From Lytechinus variegatus (taxonomy: Eukaryota; Echinodermata; Echinoidea; Temnopleuroida; Toxopneustidae), in the NCBI RefSeq assembly GCF_018143015.1, contig NC_054746.1:41482201-41546200 (forward strand): a DNA stretch of 64,000 nt, given 5' to 3'. The notes under the pieces were generated by a model. It was not told the origin of the DNA and did no database searches. It saw only the letters and a program-made list of their open reading frames with translations. Shown piece by piece: positions 2,549 through 64,000 of this stretch. The first letter of the stretch is position 1. Every line of letters begins with the position of its first letter. The translations under genes and the position numbers were made by a program.

Positions 2549-2822
2549 ATGTTTGACACATACGCGCCATTCCTGTCGGCCTATTGGTCGCATATACTCG
2601 CCATCATCATTGGATTCGTCGTCGCGAGCTTTGTTCATGTAATCCGTGATCGAGATGGGTCCCGATCAGCCAAACAATTGGGAAAGAACCGTGATCACAC
2701 TGTCAAAGAAAATAACAATGTTGCTGAATTACGCTCTGTTGCGAATGGAGACATCGATCGCCTTGTCGATGCACAAACGAAACTTGAATCGTGCGAACCA
2801 ACCGATGTTGACGACACTGGAG
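2549..2822 (+). CDS. IYD: IYD coding exon 1 (membrane anchor and linker)
   Basis: It encodes [15 protein letters not shown] followed by a run of Ile/Val/Phe/Ala that makes one membrane segment, then a charged, poorly conserved linker. It ends in phase 1 at an AG|GTAAGA donor. The following intron is about 8.6 kb and rich in repeats. No homology alone would prove this exon; the phase match with exon 2 and the anchor expected of IYD support it. Confidence 0.75.
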
Positions 2823-5800
2823 GTAAGACAACTCTTTACTAATCTCATGATTTTTAGAAAGAATACAAAAAATCGAGCAAATTTGAGACTCGCTTTGGTG
2901 AAATATTAAAAATTCATGATTACTGTATTTAGATGCTTGCGTAGGAGTGAGGGAACAAACCGGAGACCATCAATTCCTCCCCTCCTCGAGGCAACGTACG
3001 ACCTCCTTGCATCTCCTCACGACCTTCGTACGATTGCTAATAACCTCATTACGGCCTCTGTATGGCCTTGTCTTTGTCTCTTTTTAAGAGGCCTTACAAA
3101 TGAAAGCAGGTACGATAAATCGAGCTCGTAACCACCTCTAGATGTCCCCTACATCGCAGACTAAATTACATCGTAAGATGATCGTATAGAAGTGAAGATT
3201 AGCTATCATAAATTGCGATCAACCGTAGCCAAAGAAAGACAGATCGAGTTTTCTGGCTCCGAAGCAAAAAATACACTTTTAGAAAAAATTACTTATTAGA
3301 GCCTTCCTTTGTCCCGTATTTGGAACTTTTTTATAGGAACGAGAAAGGGTTCTGCAATGTTGGGCAACATACTCCACTTTATTGGGTAATGTATGTGGGT
3401 AAAAAATATAAATATTCTGGGCAATAATCCAATTGAGCATTACCCAATTATTAGTTTTTATTACCCAAGTTGGGCAGATTTAACAAAAGTTTTGTGGACC
3501 AGGGGCCGCAGAAGCGGGGGCTGGGTGGATTCAGCCCCCAATTTTTTCCAAAACCGTGTAAAAAAAACCCCGTAAAAATGACCATATGATTGTGATATTT
3601 TTGCATGGTCAGCCCCCCCCCCCGTTCCGCGGCCCCTGTGGACAGTATTTTGCCCAGTGATGGTTAAAAATTGGGCCTGTTTTTTTTTGCCCAACCTTTT
3701 TAAGAGTGTAAAATGTCCTTTAGAGCTTTTTTTGGTACTACAACCAATTTTGTATAGGTTCTTTACACCATCAAGAACCTATAAAGTGTATTAAGAACCC
3801 AAAGGGTTCCCTGTGAAATAACAACAACAATAATATTAATAACGGTATATTTACCCAGGGTAGCCACTTCAGTTCTGAAAACAGCTCTCCCACTGGGCCC
3901 TGCTATATATACCGGCTTTAGCTTGGCTACCTAGGCACTCGAGCGTTCGAGGAATTTATTCCTATCAGGTACTCATTCACCTCACCTGGGTTGAGTGCAG
4001 CACAACATTGAAATCTTAACCAAGGTTAAGTTTTTGAAATGTCATCATAACTTAAAAAGTGTGTAAACCTAGTTCATGAAACTTGGGTATAAGGGTAATC
4101 AGGTATTACTAAATATTCTGCCTGGGTTTCAGGTCACATGACCAAGGTCAGAGGTCATTTAGGGTCAATGAACCTAGACCATGTTGAGGGAATCAATATA
4201 AAAATCTTAACCAATATTAATTTTTTTAAATGATGTCATAACTTCAAAAGTATATAGACCTAGTTCATGAAACTTAAACATAAGGGTAATAGCGTATCAC
4301 TGAAGACCCTGCCTTAGTTTCAGGTCACATAATTGAGGTCAAAGGTCACCTAAGGTCAACAAAATTTGGCCATGTTGGGGTTATTTGAGGGATTGTCATC
4401 ATAACTTTGAAATTTTATGAATCTAGTTCATGAACCTTAAACATAAGAGCAATCAAGTATCTTTGAACATCCTGTGCGAGTTTCAGGTCACATGACCAAG
4501 TTCAAAGGTCATTTAGGATCAACAAACATTGGTAATGTTGGAGGTATTTGTGGAATTGTCATCATAACTCTAAAAGTTTATGGATCTAGTTCATGAAACC
4601 TGGACATAAGAGCAGCAATGCATCCCTGAATACCATGTGCGCGTTTCAGGAACATGGCCAAGATCGAAGGTCATTTAAAGGTCAATGAACACTGGTCATT
4701 TGAGGAGTACGTGTTGAATTGGCATCTAACTTAGAAAATTTATGGATCTTGCTCATGAAACATCGACATAAAGGTAATCAAGTATGAATGATTATTTTGC
4801 ACATGTCTTAGGTCACATGATTATGGTCAAAGGTCATTTTGGGTCAATGGACATGCTATTTTATTATCATATTAGTGTTTTCTTCTGTGAATATTTATTA
4901 ATTAGCTGTTTTCAAAGGCATCACTGCTGCTGCATCGAATTGCGTAATGCAGGTGAGACTGCTAGCGTTCCACTTGTGTGTTCATATCAGTCTAACTGGA
5001 ATTTATTTTGGTTTGGTACAAAATCTCATTTCAGATGCTATGTTTAGATTTAAAAATTCATAAGTTTTTAATTGATATTCAATATGCATGAAAATATGTC
5101 ATTAGTCATATTGTTTCCATCATTGATGCAATTATTTTTTACGACAGATGTCACGTTTGAATGATCATTGCGAAGTTTCTTGGCATACTGGAGTCCTTAC
5201 TTATAAACTTCAATGAAGGATAAGCTCCATGGTTTAACCTTCCACGATACATTTTTGCTCGCTCACGCCTTTGGACCCTCGTGACATAAATTTAGGAATT
5301 TATATTTGGGCCCCGTTTTATCATGGAAAAGTACATACACACCTCCAAGTATGTAAATAGTTTGATAAGATAATAGTTTCGTATAATAAAATGACAATTT
5401 GATGTGTACTCACAGAGAAATATGGATTCAAATTTGAACCTTAGGGGTTGGGGTGCTAATGAGTGCAATAATTTTATGCTCATTTATTATGCACCTTAAA
5501 AGATGAAAAGCTGCTCATTTTATGGTGCAAGATTACATCTTAAAAGGTTGGTAAAAGTTTCATTTACGGTTTTAAAAAGTCTTAGTATGCAGCGGAATAA
5601 TGCCCTTTAATGATCTTCTCACCAACTGGCGGATTTTAATTGTGCCTCTCAATGGGGGGGGGGGGGGCACGGGCTGGCTGTGCCCCCCCCCGTTAGAGGC
5701 ACAGTTAAAATTTGTTATGTAAAAAATGCCGTTAAAACGGATGTGTGCCCCCGCCCTCTTTTTTTATTATCTAATTTTTCCTAGAGAAAATGCCCCCCCT

Positions 5801-8800
5801 TTGCCCTTTGGACAATCCTGGATCCGCCCATGTTCTCACCTTGTAGGAAGTAAAAATGCTTATCATTTTTCGAATCCTTGTTCTTTACCTTGAATAATGT
5901 CAACCCCAAGCTTTTACTTTCATGAAATGTTGACCAAGCCACGCCACATACCTAGTTGATATGTTAATTATCAAATTTTCTTTTTACCTGTTATTGGGCA
6001 GATCAGATGCCAATGTCGTCGTTTTGCGTATAGACGGTGCATAAGAAAAATGAAAACTGCATCACCATTGGGAGTCTATTCAAAATAAGTTTCTTAATAT
6101 GCAGGGATATTTGAAACATTAATGAAGAACCGAAAGTTTCCTGTATCATATGGCATAAAATTACAAGTTTTCGTGTTTTTGTGAACAGAGACCACTTTTG
6201 TCGAACGTATGTTACGGTCTTAAAAGTTACCTGGACTTAACCTATGAAATGACTTGGATCAAAACGATGATTTGAGGAGGCGTACCAACAATCAAAACGA
6301 GCTGCTCCACTCTAAAAACTGAAACGTTAAATTAACAACTGAGAGGTTGTAAGAGTGGCAACCTTCTCCAAATGTTATATCCAACCTTGTATAAAGCTGA
6401 ATCCAACAATTTAAACGTTGGATCGATTCATTTAAAGTGGTAAATGCAACATATAAAAGGTTGTCACTCGTCCATACATTTAATTGTTGATTAACTGAAA
6501 CGTTAAAAACTGAAACGTTTCAGTTGATTAACTGAAACGTTAAATTAACAACTGAGAGGTTGTAAGAGTGGCAACCTTCTCCAAATGTTATATCCAACAT
6601 TGTATAAAGCTGAATCCAACAATTTAAACGTTGGATCGATTCATTTAAAGTGGTAAATGCAACATATAAAAGGTTGTCACTCGTCCATACATTTAATTGT
6701 TGATTAACTGAAACGTTAAAAACTGAAACGTTTCAGTTGATTAACTGAAACGTTAAATTAACAACTGAGAGGTTGTAAGAGTGGCAACCTTCTCCAAATG
6801 TTATATCCAACATTGTATAAAGCTGAATCCAACAATTTAAACGTTGGATCGATTCATTTAAAGTGGTAAATGCAACATATAAAAGGTTGTCACTCGTCCA
6901 TACATTTAATTGTTGATATAATATTTCGTGCTTTTTTTAGTTTTTGCCTGTGCTGTAAAACTATGTATGATTTATGTGCCTTTTGTTTATAATCTTTAAT
7001 TTGTATTTACATGAGGATTAATTATGTACACTAATAATGAGGATTTGACCATCATCAAGACCGTTATTAATTTTGTAACATTCTGGTTATGAATTGTCAG
7101 TGTTCGGTTAATATTTGTCTTTTTATGTCATCGGAAAGAGGAAAATTCATAACAACTCTCAAAACGAAAAATATATATATCTCCTAACGTGTAAAGTTTG
7201 TGTGTGATTGACGCCATTAGACCCTTGCCTGTGCGAACTTCTCATGATTCTGGCCGGAGGTTATGAAAGAAAACTACAACAATTTTCACACAAGTTGTTA
7301 TCCTTTGACGTGCCTTTACAATAGGAGTCTATAAAAAAAATAACATCGATAACACACCTTTTTATGTCAGTAATTGTTGCATCAACATTGAATTCACTTT
7401 TGTCCTCTGGAAGTTTCCGTAAACGATTGTGCTTATGGGAAATTTCTTGTTCTAGGTACTCATTTTAAAGTGAATACTTTTTATTGTTATTTTGAGAGTG
7501 TTATTTTGTGAATGAAGAGGTCAGAGCAATTCATTGTGTTAAAGAGAGCTAAACGTCAAATAATGCATCTAACTCAAACATCTACCACAAAATGCATACA
7601 TTCATGTTTCTATTTGCATGTTCTAAGAGTTCACTTATGTTTCATTTGGTTTGGAATAACTCAAATCATTTGACAGATGAATTAATTTTTTTTCGACTGC
7701 CGATTGCTTAATCAAACTTACTTTGTACTTTGTTCACATTGAAATGGATATTAGTATATTATTTACAATGAAGGATTGTCCTATCATTCAGACATTAAAA
7801 GCAGACGATCGTTGATTTGATCTTTGCTCTGTACTATACATAAATCACATGTACATTGTACATTGACGCACATTCCACGCAGAAATTTTTACCCCCCCCC
7901 CCCTTTATGCTATTGTCAAAAACTCCAATTACGTGGCATACTAAGAAACTGAAATACTAACACTAACTGATTTCATACAATATCTATTCATAGATGAACA
8001 TTATAATCGACTCAACAAACGTAAAAAACCCAAGAATTATTATACTGTTTTTCATGTGCTAGTGTTACTCAGAATTCGTATGTTAATCAAATGGCTTCGA
8101 GTCACACTTCGTTGGTCATCATTCATGATCTCATTGTGAACTTCTCGTCTCACTTATTGTTACGGAACCATGGTTTCATATTGAATAATCTAATATTCAT
8201 TGACTTGTGGGTTTAAACGAGATTGAATAATGGAGCATTTTTAATTAGATTCCAATTCATTTACCCGATGCGTCTATGCCCAGGAGGGCCCTGCATCGTA
8301 CACATTCAGATCCAGATCCAATGATCAGCAGTGTTCCAAAGATTTACAAACCTTATATACCAAACTTTGACACCCAGGCCCGATCCACCCCACAGGGGTT
8401 TATGGGTACATCCTTCTTCCAGACCAAAGTTGTACACCAATACTTATGCCCCATTATTGTGTCCCCTTTAGCATGTTTAGTAATGAGGAAGGAATGTGTA
8501 CTGAACACCTTATATATTGCAACATTTTTAAACCAGTCAATTTTCAAACCGTACTAGAAAAGGGATGTGCTTTGCTCAGATGCTACATGAATGTAGAACC
8601 TGTGGAACAACATCCCAAAAGTTCTTACATGACCATGATAACCAACCGATACCATCGGGCTTTGATTTCTACTATCTCCGACCATAAATCTGAATTAAAA
8701 AAAAAACACTTTTTAGACATTCGAATCACAGATGGTTATCCTGACTAAATAATATAATATTGACCTTGATCATGTTTTAAAGGCAATGATTCATCAATAC

Positions 8801-33442: not shown

Positions 33443-33913
33443 CTATTTCAAGTAGGGAGATACAGGAGTGAACGCTGATGCCGTGCCTTGATCAGCCGAG
33501 GAAACAGAGATGTGATGAAGCGGTGGTTGACACAACGAAATCTGAGAATTCTCCGTCATCATCCCGCTATGATGCGACGTCGATGACAACGGCGATGACG
33601 AAACATGAGAGAAATGTGATGGAGATGCAGCATCGATTGATGATCGCGGTGACGATAAACGAGGCATCATCCCCGCAGTCATTGACGTCGAAGGTGGAGA
33701 AGCAAATGGCGATATCGCGATCATTGACGAGGTGGATGAAGACGAGGATGGCGACGATGACGAAAGTGGACTGATGGGTGTGTGAGGAGAATGAGAGAGT
33801 GAAGCAGGAGATGGAGGTAGGAGATTTGATGTCGATGATGACGGTAGTTTTTGATCGATACCTTCTTTATCACGTCGCTCACGTGCTCGCCGATTTTGAA
33901 ACCAAATCTTGAC
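33443..33913 (-). CDS. Msxlx: Msxlx coding exon 3 (recognition helix and Ser/Pro tail)
   Basis: Acceptor TCATTGTCCAG. It opens with VKIWFQNRRARERRDKEG, the recognition helix, and continues 138 residues of Ser/Pro/Thr/His-rich low-complexity sequence ending VSPYLK and TAG at 33445-33443. An AATAAA lies about 60 bp after the stop. Confidence 0.96.
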   Translation of the reverse strand, partial: VKIWFQNRRARERRDKEGIDQKLPSSSTSNLLPPSPASLSHSPHTPISPLSSSSPSSSSSTSSMIAISPFASPPSTSMTAGMMPRLSSPRSSIDAASPSHFSHVSSSPLSSTSHHSGMMTENSQISLCQPPLHHISVSSADQGTASAFTPVSPYLK

Positions 33914-36900
33914 CTGGACAATGAAAAGAACAAGGTAACAAAAGTATGATTATTTGTTCAAAGCGTTTTCCTTTTATTTAGACCCCTTTGCAAACACTGG
34001 AATAAGGAAATTCGAATAACACACGAAATAAGAAATTTCTACTTTTTGTAAAGCAAACAAAATGTTATATATTTGTTGTGATCTTGCGATGTCAAAATGA
34101 ATGTTATAATAGAAAAAAAAAATCGGTATATAATTTCAGAAAATACGTGGAATTAGGGAAAAGAGCATCAATGAATTCCCTGTTCATTTGTCGATCAATA
34201 AGAAACACTGGGTTAATAAATCCATTTTTTGAAGTCACTCATCTCCACTTTCTCTTTATCTGTCGATAAAGGCACTTAACCGATACATTTTCGTTATCCC
34301 AATGAAAGAAAAATGTGAACAAAACATCTTGTTGCGTCACTCGATATTTCGATTGTGAGAATTGTACATTGCAAAAGTTTTAGGTGAGGGTATTTCAGTA
34401 GCCTTACATGGTTTATTTTCCATGAATGGTTTTCATTAAAGTCATTGTACATAAAGGTTTCGTTTGCATCCGTTTAAACTGCGGCGCTAGCAGAGTGGAA
34501 ATATGTTGAATGCTTTAAATGAAACAATTTCACAACGATTATCGGAAATCAATGTTAAAGGCAAGAAAATGTCATCAACCTCGCATTTGCTTGTCAATGA
34601 GAACGTTGAATATGGGAAGAATCAATGCGTTAAAAATCGAAGGATCATTATCAGATTTTCGAGAATCTAGGGGTAAACTCATTCCTGTCTATTAAAAAAA
34701 AGTTTGAAATTGACTTAGGTACCGCAAGATGGCGCAATTTCAAAATTAGAATCTCTTCATTTTGATCTTGATGAATATTCTATAACGTTTGCAATCAAAT
34801 TAGTGAATTAATGATAAAATTATTCATTTTGGTCAATTAAATCTATTAAATGTTAAATGTTTAAAAGGTTTAAAAGAGGGGCGGCAAATGTAAAATAACA
34901 TTTGACGGGAATTGTTTTTATTATTATTATTATTATTATTATCATTATTATCATGTTATAATAATCATTTACTAATAGTAGTAGTAGTTTTTTTGAAGAT
35001 ATCGATGTTGTGCTTATAGTTGGGAGTCATCATTTTTCTAAACCAGACCAAATTCAATGGAATAATCAAACGGAATATCCATATAGTTCAGAGGTGAACA
35101 ACTGATTAATCAATCGCAACTCTGACAGGAAATAAAAGTGGACATTGCCAAACAGCAGGATATCTCGACTAGTAATTGGAACGATAACATTACTTCTTGA
35201 TCACTGTGTGTTAATCACGAGATATACGTGGTGAATAATAAAAGGGGCAGTAGGAAAGAAGTTAATAAACATTGCTGTGTTTTAATTAGACGAATGTGCT
35301 CGTCCGATCACCGCTGTGACGAGGTGTTATCGTTATTGGATAATTAAGCGACGCAAGCTAATGAGGGCCAGGCAATAGATAACATGGTGGCCTTTTGACG
35401 TCTGAACTAATCTTATGTTGATTCAAATGGTTCGAGTAAGAAAAGAAACGTACAGGAGAAAATGATTTCAAATGGGTAACAGTCTTAGAAAGGAAGAGAA
35501 ATAGAGAAGATGAGAGAGAGAGGGAAGGAGAACGATTAATAAATGAGTAAGAAATTGAATTAACTTTTCGAATGAAGATTGGCAGTGCTCTAGAGCGCCG
35601 AAGGGGCCGCCGGAGTCAGAATGGATAATATTGATTTCGAATTTTCAGCGGGTAAATTGCATAGCAGTGGCTCGTAATGAAACGTGTAATTTTCATATCT
35701 ATTCTAAAATCAATACCAGAACAACCTTATCATGAAATCCGTTGCATAAACGCACCTGTCAGGCACATATGCCTTTCTGCCCATTTCCAGTAAAAACATG
35801 TAATGACTAAAATACATCGCAATTCGGCCTTAGCCGCGATGATGTCTTGATTTTTATTAATAAACCATTTATCTATCTATCTATCTAAAAGAATAAGATG
35901 AATAATTTCAAATTTGGGTGAATGGAATGGTGAAGGAACATCTTATATAAGAAATAAATGAAAAAAACAAACATGTGATATCATCCTCAAACATCAATTT
36001 CTTAAAATGAAATTACAAAAAGGATTAACATTCATCATCATAAAATATCTAATTACAACCGGTGTAGAAAAAAAGTTAATCATTTATTATTTTCATTCTC
36101 TAAATTATGCACGAATCTTTCTAATTGATTCTTCTTGATTGATTTTAATACTATTGTTTTATAGGCGTTTAAATCTATGTATAAATATATATATATGGTT
36201 ACTGTCCTTCCATGCACTAGGCAACATCATAATACATCATAGATACAGTTGATTTCAATTATCATTTTTTGTTCAATTTTTTTTTTCAAAATACTTATTA
36301 AAAAAATCAAATCATAAAACTATAAAGTTATACATTTCAATGAAATTGGACGAAGTATGCTATATGTATAAGCAAATATTTTCCCTGGCGCTCTGAAATA
36401 TTGAGGCGTTTTGGTAATCAAGTTGATAAAAACCATGCAATGTTCATAATCTATTTCCGGATACACCATGTCTGGCAATAAATCTGGGTTAAGACCAAGA
36501 CAAGGGTTTTTTATGAGCTTTATGTCACTTCACTTCCTCTCCTACATGACAGTTTCAAGAAATGGGTTTATTGGCTGTCAAAAAACGTGAAGAAAAACTG
36601 ATAAACAAACAATATCAGACAATTTTTGTACCAGTTTTGTAAAGCTCCTATAAGTCTTGGTCTACATTCAGATAGAAATAAAGTACTGACCAATATCACT
36701 CGGGTATTTACTCAGTCTTCGTCACTTTCTCAGTCCTATTTAAGCTTTATGTTATTTGTAACTGTTTCCAATGTACGATTAAAGAGAAGGGAGCAGCAAA
36801 TCCCTGAAAAGGTTTCTTTTTTCTATTGTGTTTTCGATTTGATTGATTACCATATTGCTGGCAAACAATGGAACTATAATGAACGACTAAAATAAAATTA

Positions 36901-60100: not shown

Positions 60101-62672
60101 TCCATAAAGACAGTGTCTATTCAGAATTAGCTTATAATGCCGCGAGTTCAATTATTGGTAAATATACTTTCACACCTTAGGCCTATGGTTTAATCTAAGA
60201 CTAATTGCAAACGCTCTTTACATCCAAATGCATGAATTTAAATACATTGTATCTAAAGTGAGTTGATTCAGTTTCTTTACTACAGACAGTATTTCTTATG
60301 GGGAGGATGGTTCGGGTTCCAACATTTGTTAGACAAAGATTTCTTGCAGCTGGAATAATATTCGTTTTCATATCTTTCTTACCCCCTGTTGCACCCACAA
60401 ATGTAATAACACTTTACCCACAAATGTAATAACGCCCACAAATGTAATAACACTTTACCCACAAATGTAATAATTTTTGATCGCCCACAAATGTAATAAT
60501 GACTTTACCCACAAATGTAATAAATTTGAAGGGATTTTTGGCGAATCCGTTCTAAACTAAAATCCTATAGTAATGCGTTCATATAGCACAAAAGTGCAGT
60601 CTTTTTTTCAGACCGGGTTAATAAAACATCAAAGTACAATTCCAAAGTCTTTTTTCCAGACCCGGTTGTTAAAAAAAATTATAATATAAATCCAAAGTCT
60701 TTTTTCCAGACCCGGTTGTTTAAAAAAATATATTAAAAGTCCAAAGTCTTTTTTCCAGACCCGGTTGTATCAAAAATTATAATATAAATCCAAAGTTTTT
60801 TTTTCCAGACCGGTTGTTTCAAGAATTTTAATAAGTCCAAAGTCTTTTTCCAGACCCAGTTATTTCAAAATTTATAATATAAGTCCAAACTAAGATACGA
60901 TAATGATATTCCTGTGGAAAAATGGGAATCGAGCTTAGTCTTATCTCCAGACCCATTTAATTAAAACTGGTGGAATTAATGTCTTTGTTGTTGTTTCAAC
61001 TTATACGGTGTATATTGTGAATATATGCACTAAGATTAAATTGAGAATCAAGCGTAGTCTTTTCTCCAGACCCGGTTACCTGTTATTTAAACATTATGAA
61101 TAACAGTTTAAAAACAGTATAAAGACCCCATAATCTTATTAATGCAAGATATAGCGTAGTCTTTCAGCCCGACCATTTTTTTCTTAAAAAAAATGCTAAT
61201 AGTAAGAATTAAAAAAAAAAAATCAAAGTCTAAGACCAAACAAACCTTCAACCTAAGAACCTGTTTTAAAAGAGGTTTAGAGTGTTGTCTTTATTCCAGA
61301 CCTAAAACAGTTACGAAAAAAATCTTCTAACATAAGACCTTATATTCTTATTCTCGTGGAATAACACGAGTTTTAAAACGTACATGTACTCTTTCCTCCA
61401 GACCCGGCTATTAAAAGCAGACATCGTTTCTCCAGACTTGGTTACTATTTGAAAAATAAAATAATTTTTACAAATATTCTAAAACGAATACCCAATAATC
61501 TAATTACTGTGGAACAACATGAAGACCGATTGTCGAAGATCGACTTTCCTCCAGACACAATTATTTCAGGAATAAAAAATCAATAACACTCAACCCCCAA
61601 CAACGAATCTAAGAACCAACAATCCTCCAAATTAAGACCATGCATGTAGAAAAGCACATGTTTAGAGCGTTGTCTTTATTCCAGACCCGGTGATTTAAAA
61701 ATGATTTAAACAATCCTAAAAACAAAAGACTCATATTCTTATTCTTGTGGAATAACACGAGTATTATGCTTAGTCTTTCGTCTGGACCCGGTTATTTAAA
61801 AGATAAAGAAATATTGAAAAAAAATGACAACTGAGACCAATCTTCAAAATTAAACCCACTTAAAATGCTTGGGCTTAGAGTGTTGTCTTTACCCCTCATC
61901 GACGTATATTATAACTTTTGAAACGACCGGGTCTGAAAAAAAGACCTTGGACTTGCATTATAATTTTTGAATTAACCGGGTCTGGAAAAAAGACTTTGGA
62001 CGTATATTAAAATTTTGAAACAACCGGGTCTGGTAAAAATACTTTGGACGTATATTATAATTTTGAAAAACCGGGTCTGGAAAAAGACTTGGACTTGTAC
62101 TGTAATATTTCATTAACCGGGTCTGGAAAAAAGACTTTGAACTTTTGTGCTCTTTGAACGCATTACTATAGGATATTAGTTTAGAATGAATTCGCCAAAA
62201 ATCACTTCAAATTTATTACATTTGTGGGTAAAGTCATTATTACATTTGTGGGTAAAGTGCATTATTACATTTGTGGGTAAAGTGTTATTACATTTGTGGG
62301 CGTTATTACATTTGTGGGTAAAGTGTTATTACATTTGTGGGCGATATCAAAATTATTACATTTGTGGGTAAAGTGTTATTACATTTGTGGGTAAAGTGTT
62401 ATTACATTTGTGGGCGATTATTACATTTGTGGGTGTAACACCCCCCCCCATCACATATTAATTTCTTGAGAGCATTCTTACTTTTATCTATCATCCTGGT
62501 GAGTATACCAGTAACTGCTGTTTGCTTGATGGTTTGGTCTTTACTACCACCACCTGTTCCTGTAGTGGTACCCGGGTTATCATTGGTTCCATCACCATCT
62601 TTGCTACCTTCTTCAAGGAGTTTTGAAGCATCAGGAACCTGAAGGGTAGCCTCTGATTTCCTCCGCTGCATT
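56577..62672 (-). CDS. Coiled-coil protein of unknown family, last four exons (gene partial in window)
   Basis: Exons 62672-62482, 58428-58370, 57881-57846 and 57179-56577 are phase-compatible (in with phase 2, then 1, 0, 0) and give about 296 C-terminal residues. Seen: a Lys/Arg start QRRKSEATLQVPDASKLLEE, a Gly/Thr/Asp-rich linker, then a continuous heptad-like helix spread over the four exons (TAVTGILTRMIDKTKE, ELRHIINELRKFDSL, ATKQKVTELSKR, CDDLKTQLEERDAELKRAL), which is the best evidence that they belong together. The long last exon then has a His/Gly/Asn segment, acidic Ser-rich stretches and the end NSIDSDF. I do not recognise the family. The coiled coil suggests oligomerisation; the acidic Ser-rich tail suggests phosphorylation. 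The 5' exons lie past position 64000. Confidence 0.75.
57180..57845 (-). other. Coiled-coil gene intron (last)
   Basis: Ordinary intron; no repeat recognised. Confidence 0.5.
57846..57881 (-). CDS. Coiled-coil gene micro-exon
   Basis: 36 nt, 12 codons, phase 0 on both sides, acceptor GTTCTAG, donor CGG|GTAAGA. It encodes ATKQKVTELSKR, which carries the heptad pattern on into the next exon. As a symmetric micro-exon it could be skipped without a frameshift. Confidence 0.65.
57882..58369 (-). other. Coiled-coil gene intron with T-rich and G tracts
   Basis: TTTATTTATTTATT-type tract and poly-T at 58130-58180 followed by about 11 G. Confidence 0.6.
58370..58428 (-). CDS. Coiled-coil gene short exon
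   Basis: 59 nt, acceptor TTTCTTTATAG, donor CTT|GTGAGT. It encodes KETSELRHIINELRKFDSL with hydrophobic residues at a/d heptad spacing. Too short to find by length; supported by phase, splice signals and heptad continuity. Confidence 0.7.
58429..60386 (-). other. Coiled-coil gene intron, part outside the foldback element
   Basis: AT-rich with a purine-rich stretch at 59340-59470; no repeat or gene recognised. Confidence 0.45.
60387..62440. mobile_element. Foldback element, 2.05 kb, with tandem-repeat inverted arms
   Basis: The ends TGTTGCACCC and GGGTGTAACA are inverted. Next come arrays of CCCACAAATGTAATAA: six copies on the left (60393-60521), ten inverted copies on the right (62212-62430). 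Then a near-identical single-copy arm (AAATTTGAAG, TTTTTGGCGAAT, TTCTAAACTAA, ATCCTATAGTAATGCGTTCA), then units carrying CTTTTTTCCAGACCCGG. There is no coding frame for a transposase. C-runs flank both sides, so any duplication is hidden. Structurally it resembles foldback elements, such as the modular TU elements described in sea urchins; identity with them is not shown. Confidence 0.85.
62482..62672 (-). CDS. Coiled-coil gene exon (first one in the window)
   Basis: Acceptor ATCAATGTTAG (a pyrimidine-rich tract lies further upstream), donor AAAA|GTAAGA. It encodes QRRKSEATLQVPDASKLLEE, a flexible Gly/Thr/Asp segment and TAVTGILTRMIDK. The foldback element starts 42 nt inside the following intron. 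Confidence 0.7.
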
Positions 62673-64000
62673 CTAACATTGATGGAGAGCGATGAGATGT
62701 AAGGGGGGGGGGGGGGGTGAAATGAAATTTAGTAGGGGTCTTGAATTAGATTTGGAAAGATAATGGTCAAGTTCATCGGTAGTTCCAGGGTTTATCAAGT
62801 GCCCTATATGTAAACCCATATGAGAGCACCCCCCCCCCCCACGTCGACCATGGCAGCAGAATTGGTCGATATTTTCCTCGTCGAAAATCTGATAAACTTT
62901 TTAAAAATTGAAACTAAGAGAAGGAAAATGAAATAGTAGTACAGTTCTTGTATAGTAAGGCACCAGCATCAGCAGAGTAAAAAGACTGGTATTGTGGCCT
63001 GTATTTCAAACACATTATTTTTCGAATTTCAAAATATATTTCAAAGTTATTAGAAAATTGATTTGGTCGCTGTTACGACACACTTTCGGTAAATAAGCAA
63101 AATGTGCAATCTACTAAAACGTGCAGTGACAGTCAAATGTCAATGTCAGATTCCAGATGACATCAACAAATTAAAAAGTGAATACACAATTAAATAGACT
63201 GAACATTGTAAAGCAGGAGATGCAATCCTACAAAATGCAGACTATATTTTGTAATTCAGATAAAAATCATATCGTAATTTCAATAACATTGTGTCATTAT
63301 GAGGAGAGGGTTAAAGGAATAATGTGTAATATTTTCACTTTGAAGTGAACATAGAAATGTGACACTAAACTCCCATTTAAAAAATCGTAAATAGCAACAA
63401 GATTCTTTGCACCATAGAGTTTTAATCAGTAATTCTTAAACATGTTTATGGGGCCAAAATTAATCATGCAATTCCACTTTCCAACACAATCTTTCTATTT
63501 CTCATTCATATATAATTGGAAACCACGCAATACTCATTGATATTATCACCACATCTCTCGACTTTGGCATACATCATTTGACTCTAATCACCGATCACTG
63601 ATTCACGTTTGTCACACACGACACAATACAAGAGTAGTTAATATCAATGTTTTCTCGACAGAAGAAAAACATCATGATTGGTTTGTGTTGAACGTGACAT
63701 TCACTCGATTGAATCTCTTCAATGCTTATGATGAATGTTATTTTGACATTTCAACCTTAATCTCAAACGATTTGTGTGGGATATACTACTTTATCAAGCA
63801 GTCAAAATAACGATCAGCGAAACTGTATCCTGTTATCTGTCTGTGCGTGCTGTGAAATGAATTTCCAAAAAGAAAGATTCTTTGAACAACTAGCGAGCAT
63901 CAAATGTCTATCAAGATAGATATTTGATGGATGAGAGTGCGACTGAACCTATTTTGATAATCAAGTTTGAAAACATACAAAATAAATATACGGAATAAAT
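62673..64000 (-). other. Coiled-coil gene upstream intron, running out of the window
   Basis: No exon could be supported here. A second C-run lies at 62829-62840. Confidence 0.4.
62703..62717. repeat. Poly-G tract
   Basis: About 15 G on the + strand. On the - strand it is a C-run just upstream of the exon acceptor at 62673 and may serve as part of its pyrimidine tract. Confidence 0.6.

What the first reader, a model, noticed from the sequence alone, without database searches (positions are those of the whole stretch)
60387..62440. Complete foldback element built wholly from satellite-like modules
Its inverted arms are made of two different tandem repeats in order: CCCACAAATGTAATAA arrays outside (6 against 10 copies), then units of about 50-60 bp with CCAGACCCGG inside. 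Spacers between outer copies alternate between ACACTTTA and CG types, so the array has its own syntax. No transposase is present. Copy-number difference between the arms shows that they expand or shrink independently.
Basis: partly seen in the sequence, partly recalled or inferred. Interest (0 to 1): 0.75.

Follow-up and report, generated by a model that had tools for sequence, protein, structure and literature searches.

The report
Mobile foldback element targeting G-runs
This is one copy of a large family of non-coding jumping DNA in an animal genome, built mostly of short repeats and inserted into runs of G or C; the family looks recently active, but the enzyme that moves it was not found.

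Summary
Window 60387-62440 is a complete insertion with ends TGTTGCA/TGTTACA, outer arrays of 6 and 10 exact 16-bp units, inner 48-49-bp arrays with CCAGACCCGG, and a 5-bp target duplication (CCCCC). It is not "wholly" satellite: about 1 kb of centre holds only sparse motifs. The window's own genome (869.6 Mb) holds 1,764 exact ends. Of 31 paired ends, 22 have an exact 5-bp duplication (control 10.5%); of 28 further pairs, 27 do (control 42%). Three copies sit at the same G-run of one host repeat, and all 40 scored copies of that repeat match across the site without the element. 940 of 1,764 ends follow five G/C bases. Copies read in full run from 1.25 to 9.3 kb; no transposase was found. I conclude it is a recently active, non-autonomous foldback DNA transposon family that prefers G/C runs. 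The 5-bp duplication argues against the sea-urchin TU family (8 bp, recalled) and Mutator. TGTTR...YAACA ends and 5-bp duplication recall integrase-type (Ginger2/TDD) transposases, as a guess. Novelty: new variant of a known kind.

The parts
60382..60386 (.). left copy of the 5-bp target duplication, CCCCC
   Evidence: exact 5-bp match to 62441-62445; such a match is exact in 22 of 31 paired ends
60387..60393 (+). terminal heptamer TGTTGCA (G-end)
60394..60523 (+). outer array, 6 exact 16-bp units CCCACAAATGTAATAA; proposed transposase-binding array (inferred)
   Evidence: spacer string acade
60524..60597 (+). unique linker between outer and inner arrays, recognisable in the copies compared
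60598..60889 (+). inner array, about 6 units of 49 bp with CCAGACCCGG
60890..61900 (.). centre, about 1 kb, sparse CCAGACC motifs, no ORF of 100 aa; mean 97% identity in 25 other copies
61901..62144 (-). inner array of the other arm, about 5 units of 48 bp
62145..62212 (-). linker of the other arm
62213..62433 (-). outer array, 10 exact units
62434..62440 (-). terminal heptamer, TGTTACA on the minus strand (A-end)
62441..62445 (.). right copy of the 5-bp target duplication, CCCCC, inside a C-run of 9

Best explanation
The element is a non-autonomous foldback DNA transposon. Shown: it is a discrete insertion with fixed but unlike ends (TGTTGCA at one, TGTTACA at the other), the family duplicates 5 bp on insertion, strongly prefers runs of G or C, inserts in both orientations at one target, uninterrupted targets exist, and 25 other copies are 94-98% like the window copy from end to end. 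Inferred: a transposase encoded elsewhere recognises the heptamer plus the adjoining array of 16-bp units (one bound protein per unit or per 41-bp pair of units), cuts the element out and joins it across a 5-bp stagger in a G/C run. The arrays grow and shrink by unequal exchange or slippage, each arm on its own; long inner arrays and nested insertions give the forms of 5 kb and more. The end sequence and stagger suggest an integrase-like DDE enzyme (Ginger2/TDD-like), as a guess (about 0.3).
For: 1,764 exact ends genome-wide, 0 for the reversed control. Exact 5-bp duplication in 22 of 31 paired ends against 10.5% of 930 mismatched pairs (one of the 31, L011, is a false pairing in a nested copy). 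28 of 29 further neighbouring end pairs match, control 338 of 812; one of the 29 is a mispairing, leaving 27 of 28. Insertions L014, L046 and L031 at the same G-run of the same host repeat, L014 and L046 in opposite orientation at the same junction; 40 of 40 scored matches (1,231 candidates) run across the junction at 96-99% with no element, and 6 of 6 read have the run without the element (one, L065, has a T within the run). 940 of 1,764 ends follow five G/C bases, against 1.2% of 5-mers in the rest of the window and 1.6% in remote flanks; all 22 exact duplications contain GGG or CCC. 25 copies 93.9-98.1% identical to the window copy. TGTNR ends and the 5-bp duplication of TDD-4/TDD-5: PMC2836005, passages.
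Against: No transposase was found: none of 52 ORFs of 70 aa or more from inner stretches of 9 long or one-armed loci (best hit of any kind DUF2170 at 3.9e-5), nor any of 8 further ORFs, matches a transposase family, so the coding partner cannot be named. 9 of 31 paired ends lack an exact 5-bp match: L011 is a false pairing, seven differ at one or two of the five positions, and L021 shows no match. Homopolymer targets make a match by chance easier, which is why the controls are 10.5% and 42%. Ginger2 is reported with 4-bp duplications at AT-rich targets, the opposite of what is seen here. Binding to the array is not tested.
Confidence: 0.88

Rival explanations
1. A satellite block or palindrome grown by local recombination, not a mobile unit.
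For: Arms consist of tandem repeats; 15,719 exact 16-bp units in the genome; one array has 11 copies of a mutated unit (L073).
Against: Fixed ends, target duplications, empty sites, and dispersed copies alike over the whole 2 kb.
Confidence: 0.02
2. A true member of the sea-urchin TU foldback family.
For: Outer domain of about 15-16-bp tandem units, inner domain, no coding (TU anatomy recalled, not read).
Against: TU duplications are 8 bp (recalled); here 5 bp, with 8-bp matches in 1 of 31. TU sequences could not be read.
Confidence: 0.1
3. Mobilised by the integrase of an LTR retrotransposon acting on TG...CA ends in inverted order.
For: TG...CA ends and a 5-bp duplication fit that enzyme class (established knowledge); rve domains in long open frames are abundant in this genome.
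Against: Ends are inverted, not direct repeats; retroviral-type integrases act on reverse-transcribed DNA, and excision of a chromosomal copy is not part of that cycle (established knowledge).
Confidence: 0.05
4. A Mutator-type foldback element, as most foldbacks are taken to be (PMC4079207, passage).
For: Tm1 of nematodes has unlike 7-bp ends outside the inverted repeat and about 14-bp redundant motifs in its arms (PMC3169594, passages).
Against: Tetris and Tm1, both assigned to Mutator, make 8-10-bp duplications, and Tm1 shows no target preference; here 5 bp and G/C runs.
Confidence: 0.03

Closest known systems
Tetris, foldback transposon of Drosophila virilis (PMC4079207; passages and section 10 read)
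   Same: Long inverted arms in ordered domains with tandem repeats of variable number, non-coding middle, no transposase found
   Different: 220-bp arm repeats, 8-10-bp duplications, Mutator assignment; here 16- and 49-bp repeats, 5-bp duplications in G/C runs
Tm1 Mutator/foldback elements of root-knot nematodes (PMC3169594; passages)
   Same: Unlike 7-bp ends A1/A2, about 14-bp redundant motif in the arms, variable copy number
   Different: 9-bp duplications, no target preference, members encoding a putative transposase known
Sea-urchin TU elements (recalled; papers not held)
   Same: Outer domain of about 15-bp tandem units, inner domain, non-coding
   Different: 8-bp duplications recalled; end sequence not compared
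Ginger2/TDD-4/TDD-5 DNA transposons (PMC2836005; passages)
   Same: TGTNR ends; 5-bp duplications in TDD-4/TDD-5
   Different: Ginger2 targets AT-rich RTATAY and makes 4-bp duplications; 50-180-bp TIRs; encodes an integrase-like transposase
Galileo, P-superfamily foldback of Drosophila (PMC3573991; passages)
   Same: Arm length varies by tandem-repeat expansion, each arm on its own; authors discuss several binding sites as an advantage
   Different: P-type transposase, other ends, 7-bp duplications (recalled)

Membership tests
Foldback-type non-autonomous TIR transposon (descriptive class) | Long inverted arms with internal tandem repeats | tested here: met
Foldback-type non-autonomous TIR transposon (descriptive class) | Discrete mobile unit: shared ends, target duplication, empty sites | tested here: met
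Foldback-type non-autonomous TIR transposon (descriptive class) | No transposase in the copy | tested here: met
   window copy; other copies read:
Sea-urchin TU elements | 8-bp target duplication (recalled) | tested here: not met
   5 bp in 22 of 31; 8-bp match in 1 of 31
Sea-urchin TU elements | Outer domain of about 15-bp tandem units (recalled) | tested here: met
   (16-bp units)
Sea-urchin TU elements | Sequence similarity to TU ends | not testable with these tools
   TU papers not held
Mutator superfamily | 8-10-bp target duplication | tested here: not met
Ginger2/TDD | TGTNR ends | tested here: met
Ginger2/TDD | 4-bp duplication at AT-rich target (Ginger2) or 5-bp duplication (TDD-4/5) | tested here: inconclusive
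   length fits TDD, target does not fit Ginger2
Ginger2/TDD | Encodes an integrase-like transposase in an autonomous partner | tested here: inconclusive
   no partner found; rve search swamped, 150 of 1,102 candidates scored
Ginger1 | 4-bp CCGG/CCGT duplication | tested here: not met
Transib/RAG-like | Ends begin CAC (recalled) | tested here: not met
   ends are TGTTRCA, although a 5-bp GC-rich duplication would fit (recalled)

The most novel reading that the evidence does not exclude
The family is moved by an undescribed transposase lineage, integrase-like in its TGTTR...YAACA ends and 5-bp stagger but specialised for homopolymeric G/C tracts, whose recognition site has been amplified into a satellite-like array, so that arms of up to 16 outer units and dozens of inner units travel as one unit of 9 kb or more.
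Probability: 0.25. Interest if true: 0.65.

Novelty: new variant of a known kind. Interest (0 to 1): 0.45.

Why it matters
Foldback elements have been described since the 1980s, and for some, such as Tetris, no transposase-coding copy is known. This family gives 1,764 exact ends, a strong G/C-run target preference, a 5-bp duplication, and copies young enough to compare unit by unit. That makes it possible to test whether satellite-like arrays inside transposons are amplified binding sites, and how transposons seed tandem repeats across a genome; the Tetris paper reports a precedent for that last step in Drosophila virilis (title and abstract start; section 10).

Tried and rejected
Search for the autonomous partner. 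Ends followed by an unusual base after the first unit were 8 and 21 cases. The 8 loci cut out (4 of 8 and 4 of 21) all carry an array, linker and inner repeat of this family. Long loci (L048, L049, L052, L053 whole; parts of L050, L051, L054) show no ORF of 140 aa and hold other repeats in the centre. Of 52 ORFs of 70 aa or more from inner stretches of 9 loci, none gave a transposase domain; for the one-armed loci L016 and L044 part of the stretch may lie outside the element. Eight further ORFs of 115-418 aa gave none either; one, 163 aa inside the short copy L037, looks like the tail of a LINE protein (my reading; Pfam gave only DIL, below its cut-off). The rve family search returned mostly hits in long open frames, probably retrotransposons, and was not useful. 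The family rva_4 (PF24764) gave 35 matches; the best, on C1 near 0.26 Mb, is 18 kb from the nearest listed exact end; a 1.5-kb piece beside it was fetched but not analysed. Ends with the same first 12 bases but a different 13th: 8 matches, control 1. All 8 were read: 6 are family members (L077 with a short degraded array running into a tRNA-like sequence) and 2 (L070, L072) look unrelated. Viral contigs: 0 matches. Rfam: 0 matches in 60300-62500. Paper searches for TU, foldback, sea urchin, Transib and poly-G targets listed no paper that I recognised as describing this family.

Considered and rejected: pure satellite block; Mutator; Ginger1; Transib; TU membership (see the membership test). 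Homogenisation of the two arms by each other was considered: one long copy (L049) has linkers 98% alike, but on average own arms are hardly closer than foreign arms (0.890 against 0.883).

Biases and dropped rows. The 39 copies were found with the 147-bp G-end arm, and only the best 40 of 969 candidates were scored, so constancy of that arm at 6 units is not evidence. In one search, 46 sources were read (window, L009-L053): 27 of the 40 short ones (window, L009-L047) and 4 of the 6 others gave a pair; the rest were dropped for want of two recognisable ends. L011 was dropped. The 29 pairs needed five G/C bases at both ends, because they come from the capped list. Checked, one of the 18 that fall in its range is a mispairing across another end, and it was the longest (11.8 kb), so I dropped it; the 11 pairs beyond that range could not be checked. 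One further 10.2-kb spacing in the list is two neighbouring elements (L054).

Full report
OBSERVATION. Left junction...TTTCTTACCCCC|TGTTGCACCCACAAATG...; right junction...TTTGTGGGTGTAACA|CCCCCCCCCATC.... Outer units: 6 on plus and 10 on minus, all exact. Inner arrays have period 48-49 bp. A linker of about 70 bp separates outer and inner arrays in each arm, and about 1 kb of centre carries only sparse motifs. There is no ORF of 100 aa inside the element other than one that runs in from its right flank.

A MOBILE UNIT. The window lies in an 869.6-Mb genome of 33 contigs. The end TGTTRCACCCACAAATGTAATAA occurs 869 + 895 = 1,764 times exactly; the reversed control occurs 0 times. I fetched 39 further copies and seven long loci. 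Of 31 pairs of ends, 22 are flanked by an exact 5-bp repeat, against 10.5% of 930 mismatched pairs; 6-bp matches fall to 6 and 8-bp matches to 1. From the capped list, 28 of 29 neighbouring end pairs match, control 338 of 812. One of the 29 spans another end and is a mispairing, leaving 27 of 28. In the 30 true pairs one end is TGTTGCA and the other TGTTACA. In the list, 29 of 32 neighbouring pairs have unlike ends and 3 have like ends.

SIZES. The 29 pairs fall into two groups, 1.25-3.2 kb (15) and 5.2 kb and above (14, one of them the mispairing). The shortest lies in L060. The longest read in full are L052 (9,260 bp, duplication GGGTT) and L053 (9,146 bp); a pair 11.5 kb apart with matching flanks (L050) was read only in part.

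EMPTY SITES. L014, L046 and L031 are inserted at the same G-run in three copies of one host repeat. L014 and L046 share the junction ...GGGTC but in opposite orientation; L031 uses ...GGGGT. Only one end of L046 was read. The joined flanks of L014 find 40 scored copies of the host repeat (of 1,231 candidates), all matching across the junction at 96-99%. Six were read; all have the G-run (9 to 14 long) without the element, one of them, L065, with a T within the run. So the run precedes the insertion, and the five bases are a duplication made by it.

TARGET. 940 of 1,764 ends follow five G/C bases. The background is 1.2% of 5-mers in the rest of the window and 1.6% in flanks more than 60 bp from copies. 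All 22 exact duplications contain GGG or CCC: GGGGG 9, GGGGT 3, GGGTC 2, GGGAC 2, GGGTG 2, GGGTT 2, GGGGC 1, AGGGG 1, strand-folded. Some targets are GC-rich without a long run, such as CGGCC. The window has 25 runs of seven or more G or C, one of them the C-run that flanks this element, so targets are plentiful.

AGE. 25 copies are 93.9-98.1% identical to the window copy over 1.6-2.0 kb, centre included; the best pair is 99.2%. This fits recent spread of one 2-kb form. Longer forms share ends, linker and inner units but have much longer inner arrays, for example 36 + 39 motifs in L052, and other repeats in the centre.

ARRAY GRAMMAR. Spacers between outer units fall into a small set; CACTTTA (135) and CG (127) are commonest among 525. 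They alternate far more than in shuffled arrays (86 against 50.5, 0 of 10,000), giving a 41-bp pair of units, which TRF also reports. In 26 short copies the A-end array has 6-16 units and the G-end array 6, the latter biased by how they were found. Among 85 distinct ends of all origins the G-end ranges from 3 to 10 and the A-end from 3 to 15, with a tokeniser that misses some mutated units. L073 has 11 head-to-tail copies of one mutated unit, a fresh local expansion. Own-arm linker identity (0.890) is hardly above foreign-arm identity (0.883), so the two arms mostly evolve as separate lineages carried together.

MECHANISM. Shown: insertion of a defined unit with a 5-bp duplication in G/C runs, in either orientation, with no transposase found in any copy read. 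Inferred: movement in trans by an unseen transposase; binding to the 16-bp arrays; array change by unequal exchange or slippage. Array expansion as gain of binding sites is discussed for Galileo by its authors (PMC3573991, passages).

WHAT IT IS NOT. Tetris and Tm1, assigned to Mutator, make 8-10-bp duplications (PMC4079207 and PMC3169594, passages). Ginger1 makes 4-bp CCGG/CCGT duplications, and Ginger2 targets AT-rich sites; TDD-4/5 make 5-bp duplications, and Ginger1 and Ginger2 have TGTNR ends (PMC2836005, passages). IS481EU has TG..CA ends but duplications of about 4, 15 or 25 bp (PMC10045372, passages). TU elements have 8-bp duplications (recalled). The nearest structural precedents are Tetris and Tm1; the latter also has unlike 7-bp ends and a 14-bp arm motif. 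I therefore file it only under the descriptive class of foldback transposons and leave the superfamily open.

NOVELTY. I recognised no paper describing this family in the listings of searches of the held library; that library lacks most subscription papers, and no repeat database was searched, so the family may be catalogued elsewhere.

Noticed in passing
window 62402-62728 (-): A 108-aa frame runs into the element's right end; its part outside the element (77 aa tested) looks like a possible exon close to the insertion; no Pfam match.
   Followed up: partly
window 4011-4785; L049 about 2770-3510; L050 2360-3301; L051 8380-9281: Tandem 163/190-bp repeats occur both in the window and in the centres of long foldback loci; possibly another repeat-bearing mobile element nested there.
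   Followed up: no
window 6317-6917: 2.8 copies of a 213-bp unit with 99% matches, a very recent tandem duplication.
   Followed up: no
G000 contig C1, first 30 Mb: 70 of the first 100 listed element ends lie in the first 4.3 Mb of C1 and 30 in the next 25 Mb: strong clustering, unexplained.
   Followed up: no
L073 (C6:10787806-10788136): Outer array with 11 regularly spaced copies (19 bp) of a mutated unit CACCTACAAATGTAATAAC, expanded one at a time and not as 41-bp pairs.
   Followed up: partly
G000:C1:427660-432881, and C1:3980540 / 29770421: Three of 32 neighbouring end pairs carry the same heptamer type at both ends; the first has matching 5-bp flanks. Could be an arm replacement or a mispairing.
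   Followed up: no
host repeat of L014, L031, L046: A repeat with a fixed G-run of about 9-14 serves as a repeated landing site; its identity was not determined.
   Followed up: partly
L057 1771-3024 (+): A reverse-transcriptase frame (PF00078, 1e-8) lies in the flank about 250 bp from an old, divergent copy's end.
   Followed up: no
window 33443-33949 (-): End of a homeodomain (PF00046, 24.5 bits) in an exon of a probable homeobox gene.
   Followed up: no
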